In this document: in pieces, positions 1-24,615 of the stretch | How positions within the stretch are numbered: position 1 is the first letter of the stretch | Layout: each line of letters begins with the position of its first letter | Origin: a bacterium | GTDB lineage: Bacteria > Margulisbacteria > Marinamargulisbacteria > JAAEMD01 | NCBI GenBank assembly: GCA_024225875.1 | Contig: JAAEMD010000004.1 | Coordinates: 1 to 33,513 of the forward strand | Direction: 5' to 3' | DNA length: 33,513 nt | Made by a program: the position numbers and the translations under genes | Notes under the pieces: generated by a model | The model's input: the letters and a program-made list of their open reading frames with translations, nothing else | What the model was told of the DNA's origin: nothing | Databases searched by the model: none

Positions 1-572
1 AAAGTCTAACTGCTCGTGGACTATCTGGTGTTAAGTACATTGTGTCAGATGATCACGAAGGGTTGAAATCCGCCTTAGAGTCAGTCTTTCCAAATGTGAT
101 TTGGAATCGATGCCACACTCATTTAGCTCGTAATGCTCAACCCTGTGTGAGTCGAAAAATTAACAAGGCAGATGTGGCTTCAGATATCCGTGATATCCTT
201 CAGGCTGCAGATCAAGAAACTGCACAGTTTCTTCTCAACCGATTTATTGAGACTTGGCAAAAAACTGAACCAAAACTGGTGGAATGGGCTGAACTCAATA
301 TCCCAGAAGGATTCAATGTGTTTAACTTGCCAAAAGCCATTCAAAAACGGCTTAGAACAACGAACCTTATTGAACGAATGAATCAAGAGCTTAAACGACG
401 CTCACGCGTCGTTCGCATCTTTCCAAATGAGGCATCTTGTCTCCGGCTCTTATCTGCTGTTGCTCTCGAAATTCACGAAGACTGGTTAACTGAAAGGAGG
501 TGTTTTTCTGATGACTATTTAATCATTTCTGAAACTATTGGAAATAGAAATTACAGAAAGAAGGTTGCTTAA
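1..572 (+). mobile_element. IS256/Mutator-family transposase, 3' (C-terminal) part; reading frame is open to the left window edge
   Basis: Frame open from about nt 3 (SLTARGLSGVKYIVSDDHEGLKSAL...), followed by RCHTHLARNA and LRTTNLIERMNQELKRRSRVVRIFPNEASCLRLLSAVALEIHEDW, typical of the Mutator transposase C-terminus. Confidence 0.9.
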
Positions 573-1709: not shown

Positions 1710-3131
1710 ATGTTTATATTTTATGACTTTGAAACATCCTCCAAAGAACTTTTAGGCCAGATTCTTACTTATGCCTTTCTGGTAGTCGACAGTCACTTCA
1801 ATATTATTGACGAAATGACAGGCAAAATAAAACTCAACAGAACTCAACTACCGGATATAGAAGCTATTCTCACAAATAAACTTAATGTACTGGATCTACA
1901 AAAAGAAGGAGATCCTGAAAATATAGCTGCAATAAAAATAAGCCGGTTCCTCAGCAAACAAGTCGATAAATATCACCAGGTTAAATTAACTGGTTACAAC
2001 TCAAATAATTTTGATCTTGCATTTTTAAGGAACCTGCTTATAAGATATGGTATCAATCCATACTTTGAAGGCAGATTATCCAGTATAGATATACTGCACT
2101 ATGTCCAGCACCTTGCTTTTGAAAACCCCGATAAATACAGATGGTCTTTAGCACTGAATAAAAATAATCAGCCTTATTATAGTTTTAAACTTGAAAATAC
2201 ACTGCATAAATTCGGACTGCTGGATAAAAAACAATCGCACGAAGCAAGGGAAGATGTCATCTCTACAATTAAGCTTGTAAGAAAGCTTCAGGATGAATTT
2301 AACTTACCTCTAAACAAATTCAAGCCGATCCATATCCCCCATAATTTTGAATGCCATGATAGTATGGAGGTCGCTAAACAAAAGACCCCTGATTATAACA
2401 GTAATGAAGCTGGCCTTAGTAAATTCATCTATACTTACTGGCTGAAAATACAGTCCTCTCCTAAAAATAAACTTGTAGTAAACCTGGCAAGATATCAAGA
2501 ACTGACATCATCAGACTTCTCACTTATGGGAACTGGTGATAATGCTAAATATCTTCGTTATATAAACCATAATAAACATTTTTTTATCCTGGAACCATTA
2601 AATAAAAGTGAAAGAACAAAGTGGCAGCCTGTTATTGAAAAATGCAAAAATGATCCTTTCCTGCAAAGTTTAAATATGGAAAAATACTTTACACTCATAA
2701 AAAAAGAATGGGACATTGAATATCAAATCCATGAGCTTGGGTTTCAAAAAATAAAAGATCTTCATTATTTGATAAATAAACTCTTAACTTATCCGGAAAA
2801 CTATAATGACACCCTGAAAATATTATTAAATAGTAGAAAAGATAAAAAAGACAATTATCTTATTCAGCTGTATAACCGGGTATATTTAAACTATCATCCT
2901 GATCCAAGGCCAGAATACCTCTATAAATATATTGAACCCAGATACATAACTGGTACTATGACAAAAAATCCGGATGATTTTGTTCCACTAAAGCAAAGGT
3001 TAGAGAAAATGACTTTAATATTAAAGTCCGATGAGTACTCAAAAGAAGACAGGGTATTAATCAAAAGCTTAAAAGACTATTATCTTAACTTTTTAAAACA
3101 TAACCATCTTCAGTCTTTTTCTACTGACTGA
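1710..3131 (+). CDS. sbcB: Exodeoxyribonuclease I-like DEDD exonuclease (SbcB family)
   Basis: N-terminal DFETSS, TGYNSNNFDLAFLRN and HEAREDV (DEDDh motifs); 473 aa; C-terminal helical part (KEDRVLIKSLKDYYLNFL) resembles the ExoI C-terminus. Confidence 0.75.
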   Translation: MFIFYDFETSSKELLGQILTYAFLVVDSHFNIIDEMTGKIKLNRTQLPDIEAILTNKLNVLDLQKEGDPENIAAIKISRFLSKQVDKYHQVKLTGYNSNNFDLAFLRNLLIRYGINPYFEGRLSSIDILHYVQHLAFENPDKYRWSLALNKNNQPYYSFKLENTLHKFGLLDKKQSHEAREDVISTIKLVRKLQDEFNLPLNKFKPIHIPHNFECHDSMEVAKQKTPDYNSNEAGLSKFIYTYWLKIQSSPKNKLVVNLARYQELTSSDFSLMGTGDNAKYLRYINHNKHFFILEPLNKSERTKWQPVIEKCKNDPFLQSLNMEKYFTLIKKEWDIEYQIHELGFQKIKDLHYLINKLLTYPENYNDTLKILLNSRKDKKDNYLIQLYNRVYLNYHPDPRPEYLYKYIEPRYITGTMTKNPDDFVPLKQRLEKMTLILKSDEYSKEDRVLIKSLKDYYLNFLKHNHLQSFSTD

Positions 3132-8073: not shown

Positions 8074-8100
8074 TTAGCACTCTGTTGCAGCGAGTGCTAA
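8074..8100 (-). promoter_or_regulatory. CIRCE operator (HrcA binding site) upstream of hrcA
   Basis: Perfect TTAGCACTC-N9(tgttgcagc)-GAGTGCTAA. Confidence 0.97.
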
Positions 8101-8152
8101 AGAGCGCCTAGGATACCCTTAAAATGAACATAATGTCAATATAGTTTTATAC

Positions 8153-8223
8153 TATACAGCTGGTACAAATTGAAATGTCCGTTTAACTTTAAGTGTCGGA
8201 CATTTTACTTTGGAACAGCTATA
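8153..8223 (+). repeat. Palindromic MITE-like element, copy A (short variant, central stem deleted)
   Basis: tatacagctggtacaaattgaaatgtccg-tttaactttaagtgt-cggacattttactttggaacagctata; both terminal inverted repeats kept, interior reduced. Confidence 0.85.
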
Positions 8224-8337
8224 TAGCCGATCCGAAATGAAATGTCCGTTTAAATGACTGAGTGCTGTGTACTGACGTACATAAACGAAGTCATTTGAAA
8301 ACTTTAGTGTCGGACATTTTACTTTGGAACAGCTATA
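8222..8337 (+). repeat. Palindromic MITE-like element, copy B (full length); abuts copy A at a shared TA
   Basis: tatagccgatccgaaatgaaatgtccg...gtgtactgacgtacataaacgaagtcatttgaaaactttagtgtcggacattttactttggaacagctata. Confidence 0.9.
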
Positions 8338-8414
8338 GCTCAAAGATAACTGTTTCTTGAGATTACAAAACATGTTATCTTTATTGACTTTATTAAAGGA
8401 GGGAAAGGAGCAGG

Positions 8415-9377
8415 ATGTTAAATACTGGAGTTATCGGCCTTGGTAATATGGGGCGGCACCATGTTAGATTATACAGCGAAAATAAAAGAGTTAATTTAGT
8501 TTGCGTTTGCGATATTCATCAGGACATCTTAAATAAATTCACTTCTAATTATTCATGCCGGGGTTACTTAAACCTCGATGATATGTTAAATAATGAAGAA
8601 CTTGACGCAGTAACCATAACCTCACCAACCTCATTACACTACGAAATTGCTAAAAAAATCATCCAGAAAGGCATCCATGTTCTTATTGAAAAACCAGTTA
8701 CAGATACAACCGAAAGAGCTAACGAGTTAATAGATCTTGCAAAAAAACATAATGTGATAATTATGGTCGGTCATATAGAACGTTTTAACCCGGCTGTTAC
8801 AGCTCTTAAAAAACTAATCGATGAAGGTCAGGCAGGCAGGATCATTTCCCTTTCTTCCCGCAGGCTTGGAACCTTTCCTAATCAAATAAAAGATGCCAGT
8901 GTTATTATTGATCTGGCAGTACATGATATTGATATCTGTTCTTACTTACTGGATAAAGAACCTGTAAAAGTATATGCCCATAAAGTTAAGGCTCTTATTG
9001 ACAGTAGAGAAGACCATGCAGAACTTTTTCTTACTTATGACAATGAAAGCGCTTTTATTCAAGTTAACTGGATAACCCCCATAAAGATAAGGACCCTTGC
9101 AGTAACAGGAACCAGAGGCTATGTAGAGCTGGATTATCTAACAAAAAAATTAACTTTATATAAGAGTAATTACTCCAGAAGCAAAGATATAAACGGAGAA
9201 ACTGTTATAAATTTTAAAGATACTGAAAAAGTTGATATACCTGTTCAAAACATCGATCAGCTGACAGTAGAAATAGACCATTTTGTTACCTGTATCAAAG
9301 AAAACAGGCCGCCTCTAATAGACGGTGAAGCAGGAAAGAAAGCTCTGGAAACAGCACTTAATGTTCTTAATCAATAA
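8415..9377 (+). CDS. Gfo/Idh/MocA-family NAD(P)-dependent oxidoreductase (possibly a sugar or nucleotide-sugar dehydrogenase)
   Basis: Rossmann GVIGLGNMGRHHVRLY, LIEKPVTDT, VIIDLAVHDIDICSYLL; 320 aa; good SD (aaggagggaaaggag). Confidence 0.9.
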   Translation: MLNTGVIGLGNMGRHHVRLYSENKRVNLVCVCDIHQDILNKFTSNYSCRGYLNLDDMLNNEELDAVTITSPTSLHYEIAKKIIQKGIHVLIEKPVTDTTERANELIDLAKKHNVIIMVGHIERFNPAVTALKKLIDEGQAGRIISLSSRRLGTFPNQIKDASVIIDLAVHDIDICSYLLDKEPVKVYAHKVKALIDSREDHAELFLTYDNESAFIQVNWITPIKIRTLAVTGTRGYVELDYLTKKLTLYKSNYSRSKDINGETVINFKDTEKVDIPVQNIDQLTVEIDHFVTCIKENRPPLIDGEAGKKALETALNVLNQ

Positions 9378-9458
9378 AGAATGATTTAATTAATTTCCTT
9401 AACTGTATCAGGAAAAAATTCAGCACTTCAAAAAAAAGTGTTTAATAATAGAAGTTAC

Positions 9459-9574
9459 TATAGCTGGTACAAATTGAACTGTCCGTTTAAATGGGAAAGT
9501 GCAGTGTACTGGCGTACATTAAAGAAGTCATTTGAAAACTTTAGTGTCGGACATTTTACTGTGGAACAGCTATA
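9459..9574 (+). repeat. Palindromic MITE-like element, copy C (full length)
   Basis: tatagctggtacaaattgaactgtccgtttaaatgg...gtgtactggcgtacattaaagaagtcatttgaaaactttagtgtcggacattttactgtggaacagctata. Confidence 0.9.
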
Positions 9575-9661
9575 AACTTCCAAAACAATAAATATAATGA
9601 TAAACTTCCATTAAAATATTTAATATATATAATTTAACTTAGATAGAAAGGTTTAACTAAA

Positions 9662-10819
9662 ATGACGTATTTATTTAGTTCTGAATCTGTCTCGGAAGGA
9701 CATCCGGATAAACTTTGTGATCAGATATCTGATGCAATTCTTGATGAAGCTTATAGACAGGATCCCCTGTCCCGTGTTGCAGCAGAATGCTTCACAACTA
9801 CAGGATTAGTCGTTATTGGAGGTGAAATAACAACCAGGGCTCAACTGGATATTCAAAATATTGTAAGAAATACAATAAAAGAAATCGGCTACACTAATCC
9901 TGACTATGGACTGGATGGAAACAGCTGTTCTGTTCTATCTGCAATTCATGACCAGTCACCAGATATTGCACAGGGAGTTAACAAAGGTGCCGGACTACAT
10001 AAGGAAATGGGCGCTGGAGATCAGGGTATGATGTTTGGCTATGCCTGCCGTCAAACACCTGCATTGATGCCACTGCCAATATATCTTTCACATAACCTGG
10101 TTAAGGAACTGGCTCGTATAAGAAAGGCAAAGGAGCTATCGTACTTAAGACCGGATTCGAAAGCACAGGTTACAATAGAGTATGAAAATAATTTACCAAA
10201 AAGAGCTCATACAGTAGTAATATCAACACAGCATGATCCTGACGTCAGTCTTGAAACTATTGAAAAGGATATGATCAGCAAATTAATTAAAAATGTAATC
10301 CCGTCACAGTATTTAGATGAAAAAACAAGATACTTTATTAATCCTACCGGCCGCTTCGTTATCGGAGGCCCTCATGGAGACACCGGACTGACCGGCAGAA
10401 AAATCATTGTTGATACTTATGGCGGTTGGGGCGCTCATGGCGGAGGAGCTTTTTCTGGCAAAGACTGCTCAAAGGTAGATCGTTCCGGAGCATATATGGC
10501 AAGATATATTGCTAAAAATATAGTTGCCGCAGAGATTGCTAAAGAAATTGAAATACAAATAGCTTATGCTATTGGCGTTGCTGAACCGGTTTCATTAACA
10601 GTAAAAACGTATGGTTCAGGAAAAGTATCAAATCTTGAAATTACTAAATTAATAAATGACCACTTTGATTTAACCCCGGAAGGCATAATTAAAACACTGG
10701 ACTTAAGACGTCCAATATACAAAAAAACAGCTGCTTACGGGCATTTTGGTCGTGATGATTTAGATGTTAGCTGGGAAAAAACGGATAAAGCTGAAGAATT
10801 AAAAAAAGCTGTAAGTTAA
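9662..10819 (+). CDS. metK: S-adenosylmethionine synthetase
   Basis: [62 protein letters not shown]. Confidence 0.98.
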
Positions 10820-15013: not shown

Positions 15014-15133
15014 TATACAGCTGGTACAAATTGAACTGTCCGTTTAAATGGCTGAGTGCAGCTTCACAGACGTACATAAACGAAGTCATTTGAAAACTTT
15101 AAGTGTCGGACATTTTACTTTGGATCAGCTATA
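15014..15133 (+). repeat. Palindromic MITE-like element, copy D (full length, diverged apex)
   Basis: tatacagctggtacaaattgaactgtccgtttaaatggctgagtgcagcttcacagacgtacataaacgaagtcatttgaaaactttaagtgtcggacattttactttggatcagctata. Confidence 0.9.
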
Positions 15134-23158: not shown

Positions 23159-23956
23159 ATGGAAAAGGTATCAACAGGTATTTTTGGCGGAAGCGGTTTT
23201 TATAAATTCGGAGAAAATATTAGTGAAGTTAAAATAGATACTCCCTATGGTATTACCAGCAGCTCTATATTTATAGCCTCAGTTGAAGGGAAAAGAGTAG
23301 CCTTTCTACCCCGACATGGAGTTGACCATATATATCCTCCTCATAAAATTAACTATAGAGCTAATTTATGGGCAATGAAAGAACTTGGAGTAAAACAGTT
23401 ATTCGGCCCATGTGCTGCAGGATCACTCCAGACACAAATAAAGCCCGGTGAACTGGTATTTTGCGATCAATTTATCGACAGAACTAATGGCCGGAAAGAT
23501 ACTTTCTATGATGGACCGGTAACTACACATATATCCTGTGCAGAACCTTATTGCCCTGAACTACGGACAATTGCCCGGAAATCAGCTGAAGATCTAAAAA
23601 TACCATTCCATAAAACAGGAACTGTTGTTGTAATTAATGGACCAAGATTCTCTTCAAAAGCCGAGTCAAAGTGGTTCTCTGAAAGCGGGTTTGACATCAT
23701 AAATATGTCACAGTACCCTGAAGTTGTTTTAGCAAGAGAACTGGAAATATGCTATATGAATATTTCATTAATAACTGATTATGACTGTGGCCTGGAGCAT
23801 GAGGCTGCACCAACTGATGTTAAAAGTATTATCGAAGTATTTGAACGTAACCTGTCAAACTTAAAATTATTATTATTCAGTATTATCAAAAATCTTCCAC
23901 CTGATCTGCCATGTTCTTGTAAAGAAACTCTAAAAGCATCAAGGTTCAATGATTAA
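23159..23956 (+). CDS. mtnP: S-methyl-5'-thioadenosine phosphorylase
   Basis: TGIFGGSGFYKF; VAFLPRHGVDHIYPPHKINYRANLWAMKELGV; VVINGPRFSSKAES; INMSQYPEVVLARELEICYMNISLITDYDCGLE. Confidence 0.95.
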   Translation: MEKVSTGIFGGSGFYKFGENISEVKIDTPYGITSSSIFIASVEGKRVAFLPRHGVDHIYPPHKINYRANLWAMKELGVKQLFGPCAAGSLQTQIKPGELVFCDQFIDRTNGRKDTFYDGPVTTHISCAEPYCPELRTIARKSAEDLKIPFHKTGTVVVINGPRFSSKAESKWFSESGFDIINMSQYPEVVLARELEICYMNISLITDYDCGLEHEAAPTDVKSIIEVFERNLSNLKLLLFSIIKNLPPDLPCSCKETLKASRFND

Positions 23957-24530
23957 TTTCCTGATAAAAAGAAATATTCATCAACAAATAAAACAGGTCG
24001 GTAGAAAATGCTTTCTTGCAGGCCTTAATAATTCACACAGCGGTAATATAAGTATCAAAAAAAATAATTATATTTATATAACCAGAACAGGCAGCAGTCT
24101 GGATCAGCTAAAAATAAGTGATATCATAAGAACAGAGCTCAATGTAAATAAAGTGGCTGATAGATATGCTTCTATTGAGCTCATTGTTCATCGTGCAATA
24201 TATAAGGCTAACCCGGATATCAACTCTATAACACATGCCCATGCCCCGTATGCTATTGCTATGGCAGATAAAGGCCGGGATTTAATCCCGTATGATGATG
24301 AAGGGAAGTATTATTTAGGCAGTATTCCTGTACTTAGTATTGAAAATACGATAGCATCAAAAAATATAGCTGATCAAATAAGAAGCTATGTTCATAATTC
24401 ACACAGTATTATAATTGCAAAACATGGAGTTTTTGCCTGGGGGCCATCTCTTGATGATGCTTATAAATTTTTGTCAGTAACTGAATCGGCCTGTAAAATA
24501 AACTATCTTACTATAGCTGGTACAAATTGA
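23949..24530 (+). CDS. Class II aldolase/adducin-family protein; C-terminus and stop codon come from a repeat element
   Basis: NSHSGNISIK, YITRTGSSLDQL, ASIELIVHRAIYKANPDINSITHAHAPYAIAMA, IIIAKHGVFAWGPSLDDAY; overlaps the mtnP 3' end; last codons ..T-I-A-G-T-N-stop lie inside element copy E. Confidence 0.9.
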   Translation: MINFLIKRNIHQQIKQVGRKCFLAGLNNSHSGNISIKKNNYIYITRTGSSLDQLKISDIIRTELNVNKVADRYASIELIVHRAIYKANPDINSITHAHAPYAIAMADKGRDLIPYDDEGKYYLGSIPVLSIENTIASKNIADQIRSYVHNSHSIIIAKHGVFAWGPSLDDAYKFLSVTESACKINYLTIAGTN

Positions 24531-24615
24531 AATGTCTGAGTGCTGTGTACTGGCGTACATTAACGAAGTCATTTGAAAACGTCAGTGTCGGACATTTTAC
24601 TTTGGATCAGCTATA
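24512..24615 (+). repeat. Palindromic MITE-like element, copy E (104-bp subfamily)
   Basis: tatagctggtacaaattgaaatgtctgagtgctgtgtactggcgtacattaacgaagtcatttgaaaacgtcagtgtcggacattttactttggatcagctata; lacks ~12 bp of the left inner arm found in copies B-D. Confidence 0.9.

What the first reader, a model, noticed from the sequence alone, without database searches (positions are those of the whole stretch)
8222..8337. Family of palindromic, MITE-like elements scattered through housekeeping intergenic DNA (six copies, five loci in 33.5 kb)
Copies at 8153-8223, 8222-8337, 9459-9574, 15014-15133, 24512-24615 and 32651-32754 (inverted) share a layout. The ends are ~27-bp imperfect terminal inverted repeats: left tatagctggtacaaattgaaatgtccg, right cggacattttactttggaacagctata. 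An inner inverted repeat follows (taaatgac/gtcattt), then an apical hairpin tgtac-TGRC-gtaca and a conserved asymmetric block aactttaagtgt. TATA ends with TA at each junction fit TA target duplication, as in IS630/Tc1-mariner-type MITEs. None of the copies encodes a protein and no cognate transposase lies in the window (the IS256 fragment is a different type). At this density the family may be abundant genome-wide, which is an inference.
Basis: partly seen in the sequence, partly recalled or inferred. Interest (0 to 1): 0.85.

Follow-up and report, generated by a model that had tools for sequence, protein, structure and literature searches.

The report
IS630-driven MITE family in uncultivated bacterium
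A roughly 116-base, non-coding, hairpin-shaped jumping element is present in about 260-270 copies between the genes of this uncultivated bacterium, almost certainly moved by IS630-type transposases whose remains lie in the same genome; it is a well-supported new example of a known kind of element (like pneumococcal RUP or Neisseria Correia repeats), not a new kind.

Summary
The six window copies belong to a family with about 270 right ends (<=3 mismatches) in the 2.5-Mb, 590-contig genome; the reversed control pattern gives none. Ends are sharp at TATA...TATA. One copy sits inside another repeat whose uninterrupted copies show a single TA, which establishes TA duplication and past mobility. 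Four identical copies lie in unrelated flanks. The left end of the 8222 copy matches one of them (IS-A) 27/27; the other two MITE end types match further remnants 26/27 and 25/27. So this is a RUP/Correia-type, IS630-mobilised MITE. No copy was found in 58 relatives, nearest in the same class. The elements avoid genes (84 of 88 have midpoints outside gene calls, where 14.5% of TA sites lie) and fold strongly (z -8.4). Minor unusual features: a recurrent 69-70 bp hairpin-less form, tandems always head-to-tail that (in full-length pairs) share exactly TATA, and ends shared with IS-A. Effects on host genes are untested.

The parts
8155..8223 (+). Short-form MITE (69 bp) that lacks the inner hairpin; joined to the next copy through a shared TA
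   Evidence: three other short forms at unrelated sites
8222..8337 (+). Full-length MITE (116 bp); left TIR TATAGCCGATCCGAAATGAAATGTCCG identical to the TIR of IS630-type IS-A
9459..9574 (+). Full-length MITE between an oxidoreductase gene and metK
15016..15133 (+). Full-length MITE (left end TACAGC)
24512..24615 (+). MITE with 12-bp internal deletion; its left end supplies the last codons and stop (IAGTN*) of the ORF 23949-24530
32651..32754 (-). Decayed inverted MITE copy
32477..32528 (-). Uninterrupted copy of a second repeat (GTTTCAGCCTCATTGC..ATCAACACTATTGTGGGCCAGTTTA); in contig C161 a MITE sits in the TA of this repeat, so this copy is one of the related empty sites

Best explanation
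These are copies of a non-autonomous MITE moved in trans by IS630-family (DD34E, DDE_3) transposases of the same genome. The transposase recognises the ~27-bp terminal repeats (TATAGC...TGTCCG), cuts at the ends and inserts the element at a TA, which is duplicated. Copies persist mainly between genes because insertions in genes are selected against; some decay, lose the inner hairpin, or become tandem duplicates. Shown here: the ends, the TA duplication at one site, the copy number, identical copies at unrelated sites, and IS630 remnants with matching ends. Inferred: that the IS630 transposase does the cutting and joining, and that it still does so today.
For: Family size and control. Sharp TATA boundaries in 75-77 of 80 copies. 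Related empty site: CATCAACAC-[TATAGCC..CAGCTATA]-TTGTGG against CATCAACACTATTGTGG at several other places including window 32477-32528. Four identical 116-bp copies with unrelated flanks. IS630 remnants: the transposase C-terminus ...GTKLHLLKPAVC* is followed by the TIR in C428 and C536; DDE_3 at 1.3e-26 for the relative in C248. TIR identities of MITE ends to IS remnants are 27/27 (IS-A), 26/27 when the common C variant of the left end is used (C482) and 25/27 (C318). Contigs C93 and C454 each break exactly 140 nt into an identical IS-A copy with unrelated flanks, as expected of a multi-copy IS. An IS630 of a same-class genome (G030, 46% identical) is followed by a similar end ..TTTCATTTTGGAACGGGTATA.
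Against: No intact full-length IS copy is assembled in the bin, so the complete cognate transposase was not seen. The MITE interior is not recognisably derived from the IS (21 to 268 of 500 shuffles reach the observed score). Only one site gives clean related-empty-site evidence. No orthologous empty sites could be checked because the nearest genome held is only of the same class.
Confidence: 0.93

Rival explanations
1. The elements are now mainly host-exapted RNA or DNA regulatory modules (mRNA processing hairpins, stop-codon suppliers or promoters), retained by selection, with mobility only in the past.
For: Strong hairpin (z -8.4 for the 8222 copy); excess between divergent genes (29 observed, 19 expected); five genes end in element-supplied tags such as IAGTN* or IAVPK*.
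Against: Compensatory base changes are essentially absent: variation at stem positions is mostly one-sided or breaks pairs. The promoter-like count equals shuffles (6 against 5.7). The hairpin follows from the inverted repeats alone. The family is patchy: none in 58 relatives.
Confidence: 0.1
2. REP/BIME-type repeats moved by an IS200-like (RAYT) tyrosine transposase.
For: One Y1_Tnp gene is present (C241); the elements are palindromic and intergenic.
Against: TA duplication with inverted ends identical to IS630 ends; the length and the 27-bp TIRs are not REP-like; RAYT/IS200 elements do not duplicate TA (general knowledge).
Confidence: 0.02
3. Assembly or binning artefact: repeats of another organism mixed into the bin.
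For: Highly fragmented MAG (590 contigs); the same repeats also sit on contigs binned as a Desulfobacteraceae MAG.
Against: Six copies lie within one 33.5-kb contig of housekeeping genes and copies are spread over scores of contigs. Contig L178 of the other MAG shares an exact 141-nt end with contig C237 here and has similar G+C, so that other bin is probably the misbinned one.
Confidence: 0.02

Closest known systems
RUP (repeat unit of pneumococcus) with IS630-Spn1, Streptococcus pneumoniae
   Same: 107 bp, ~108-110 intergenic copies, TA target, TIRs matching a resident IS630 element, hairpin transcript (PMC2229807, PMC3049150)
   Different: Different host, and no sequence comparison was made; more than twice the copy number here; several co-resident IS630 variants match the different MITE ends; a hairpin-less short form exists
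Correia / NEMIS (CREE), Neisseria
   Same: TA at termini, ~24-bp TIRs, 107 and 155 bp forms differing by an internal segment, stem-loop RNA (PMC2229807)
   Different: Different host; the IHF site, promoters and RNase III processing known for Correia are not shown here; that review names no parental IS for Correia, whereas IS630 remnants with matching ends are present here
ERIC / IRU
   Same: 127 bp, intergenic, TA, hairpin-forming (PMC2229807)
   Different: TIR only 7 bp; no parental IS in that review
TATA-ended MITEs of Candidatus Thiomargarita nelsonii
   Same: Abundant TATA-ended, hairpin-forming elements in a fragmented single-cell genome (PMC4853749)
   Different: No parental IS found there; one lies inside a group I intron

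Membership tests
MITE (general) | Short (<~200 bp), non-coding, with terminal inverted repeats | tested here: met
   mostly 116-118 bp with ~27-bp TIRs
MITE (general) | Many dispersed copies with unrelated flanks | tested here: met
   270 right ends; 4 identical copies at unrelated sites
IS630-mobilised MITE (RUP-like) | Insertion at TA with TA duplication | tested here: met
   TATA ends in 75-77 of 80 copies; related empty sites
IS630-mobilised MITE (RUP-like) | Ends match a resident IS630 element | tested here: met
   27/27, 26/27 and 25/27 to IS remnants next to transposase C-termini
IS630-mobilised MITE (RUP-like) | Transposase of IS630 type (DDE_3, DD34E) | tested here: met
   PF13358 1.3e-26 on the C248 relative; D-34-E spacing counted in the C248 fragment and in the G030 relative (sequences); of IS-A itself only the C-terminal part and the first 57 nt of the coding part are assembled
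IS630-mobilised MITE (RUP-like) | Transposition in trans demonstrated | not testable with these tools
   needs an assay
Correia/NEMIS | Sequence homology to the Correia consensus | not tested
   no alignment to a Correia consensus was made; no Rfam hit over the element
REP/RAYT | Short palindromes next to a RAYT gene, no target duplication | tested here: not met
   TA duplication and IS630 ends; a single Y1_Tnp gene elsewhere

The most novel reading that the evidence does not exclude
The MITE family is cross-mobilised by several diverging IS630 elements of one genome and follows them by exchanging its terminal repeats (the IS-A end appears exactly in several different MITE backgrounds, including the most recently spread identical copies), while its hairpin drives local slippage that repeatedly makes head-to-tail tandems and hairpin-less short forms.
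Probability: 0.3. Interest if true: 0.5.

Novelty: new member of a known kind. Interest (0 to 1): 0.36.

Why it matters
It adds a well-documented IS630/MITE pair from an uncultivated bacterium, with a density (about 105 right ends per Mb, about 1.2% of the genome) in the range of the best-known bacterial MITEs, and with the probable mobilising IS in the same genome, which is often missing. Several end variants matched to several IS remnants make the co-evolution of MITE and transposase ends testable.

Tried and rejected
Plasmid collection: one 35-bp chance-level match. Viral contigs: no exact match to the TIR pattern. Rfam: only a tRNA in the window. The full-length cognate IS was sought with a hybrid N-terminal query (19 residues read from C454 joined to the G030 relative) and only fragments were found. 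Derivation of the MITE interior from the IS right end: suggestive 7-8 base matches, not significant. Promoters inside the element: no excess over shuffles in 8100-9700. Other IS630 genes of the genome (C23, C203, C487, C10) have no MITE-like ends nearby. Most of the 'spanning' hits are tandem MITE copies, not empty sites. A literature search that included one guessed lineage name found no description; the phylum of the organism was not established; ISfinder was not available.

Full report
What was checked. The window is contig C4 of a 2.52-Mb genome in 590 contigs, 89% complete. All six copies reported are present, with starts corrected to 8155 and 15016. A search with the 8222 copy finds full-length relatives of 86-100% identity on many contigs. 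The right-end pattern with up to three mismatches occurs 137 + 133 times; the same pattern reversed occurs 0 times. In 542 kb of fetched contigs a profile finds 97 elements or fragments; 18 contigs taken without regard to the element (52 kb) hold 3. A first, unoriented profile run on the same contigs reversed found none.

Anatomy. The consensus of 74 distinct copies is ATAGCTGgTACAAATTGAAcTGTCCG-TTTAAATGgCTGAGTGCaGTGTACtggCGTACATaAACGAAGTCATTTGAAAACTTtAGTGT-CGGACATTTTAcTTTGGAaCAGCTAT, flanked by T and A. Left and right TIRs differ at fixed positions. The RNA of the 8222 copy folds to -47 kcal/mol against -19.8 +/- 3.2 for shuffles. Stem positions are mostly invariant or vary on one side; compensatory changes are essentially absent, so the hairpin needs no explanation beyond inverted repeats. 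Base composition is unstructured outside the TATA boundaries.

Mobility. Flanks of 75 copies were joined across a single TA and compared with the held DNA. Most spanning hits are tandem MITE copies, but the C161 copy lies inside a second repeat: CATCAACAC-TATAGCC...CAGCTATA-TTGTGGACC, while uninterrupted copies read CATCAACACTATTGTGGGCC at several places including window 32477-32528. The insert is therefore TAGCC...CAGCTA with a duplicated TA. Four copies identical over 116 bp have four unrelated flanks.

Mobilising element. The genome has 14 DDE_3 matches. A group with the C-terminus FCNKSSPEHKAL..KKSVGTKLHLLKP is followed within a few bases by ends of the MITE type. IS-A (C428, C536; left parts C93, C454, C382) has TIR TATAGCCGATCCGAAATGAAATGTCCGGA at both ends; this is the exact left end of the 8222 MITE and of several others. 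A remnant in C482 (...GTSRHLLRSAIC*) ends TATAGCTGGTACAAATTGAACTGTCC, the common MITE left end; a remnant in C318 (...ARLHLLKPAVC*) ends TATAGCTGTTCCAAAATGAAATGTCCG, close to the common right end (reading frames read from the sequence). C93 and C454 share an identical last 140 nt starting exactly at TATA, with unrelated flanks. A shared 141-nt contig end elsewhere suggests an assembly k-mer of 141, so IS-A is multi-copy and its interior was probably lost to repeat collapse; this is inference. In C382 an IS-A end sits at the TA of a MITE-like left end (ATATAGCTGG-TA-TAGCCG), a nested insertion. Beyond TGTCCG the MITE interior does not significantly resemble the IS.

Distribution. Of 88 elements scoring over 30 bits, 4 have their midpoint inside a simple gene call, although 85.5% of TA sites are in such calls; by overlap, 3 lie inside and 11 overlap a call. 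Between genes, divergent pairs hold 29 (19 expected), tandem pairs 30 (41), convergent pairs 7 (6). Expectations come from crude ORF calls, most contigs were chosen because they hold the element, and tandem elements are not independent, so this bias is weak. In five genes the element supplies the last codons and stop, e.g. IAGTN* for the window ORF 23949-24530.

Secondary processes. Short forms of 69-70 bp lacking the inner hairpin occur at four unrelated sites; their remaining right interiors differ (ACTTTAAGTGT, ACTTCAGTGG, ACTTTAGTGT, ACTTATGTGG), much as the full-length variants do, which suggests repeated loss, though spread of a short form with later mutation is not excluded. Adjacent copies are always in the same orientation: four full-length pairs, each sharing exactly TATA, plus pairs with partial copies. 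In three of the four pairs the partners are among each other's closest relatives. Slippage between the terminal TATA repeats would give this; it is an inference.

Relatives. No match in 58 other genomes, none closer than the same class. One of those contigs overlaps contig C237 by an exact 141 nt, so it probably belongs to this organism and was misbinned. A same-class genome has a 46% identical IS630 transposase followed by ...GTTTCATTTTGGAACGGGTATA, a related end.

Judgement. The closest known case is RUP with IS630-Spn1; Correia and ERIC are of the same general kind. The kind is known, no description of this family turned up in the papers searched, and ISfinder was not searchable. I file it as a new member of a known kind.

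Noticed in passing
window 32477-32528; L121 10258, L122 3460, L127 14042, L160 542 and others: Second dispersed repeat (GTTTCAGCCTCATTGCYCATCAACACTATTGTGGGCCAGTTTA), sometimes next to heptamer-like AACTTAG repeats; three copies keep only the ATCAACACTATTGTGGGCCAGTTT part, so it may be the end of another mobile element.
   Followed up: partly
L068 ~1413-1439, L071 157-183, L073 ~752-780: Another IS630 group in the genome with ends TATAGCTAATTCATAATAA.. / GCGACATTTTATTATGAATTAGCTATA, remnants only.
   Followed up: partly
L084, L085, L086, L089, L083 (963-1040): A third IS630 group with end TATACCCAGTCCGAAATAAAAACGATAACT; all five copies stop at contig ends, so the IS is probably multi-copy and unassembled.
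   Followed up: partly
window 42-572: C-terminal part of an IS256/Mutator-type transposase (PF00872), unrelated to the MITE.
   Followed up: yes
window 1710-3131: 473-aa ORF that reads like an exonuclease I (DEDD) protein but has no Pfam match at E 0.01.
   Followed up: partly
L178-L180 (JAAELK, Desulfobacteraceae MAG Bpl_3): Contigs carrying this MITE sit in a public MAG named as another lineage; L178 overlaps contig C237 of this genome by 141 identical bases, so they are probably misbinned.
   Followed up: partly
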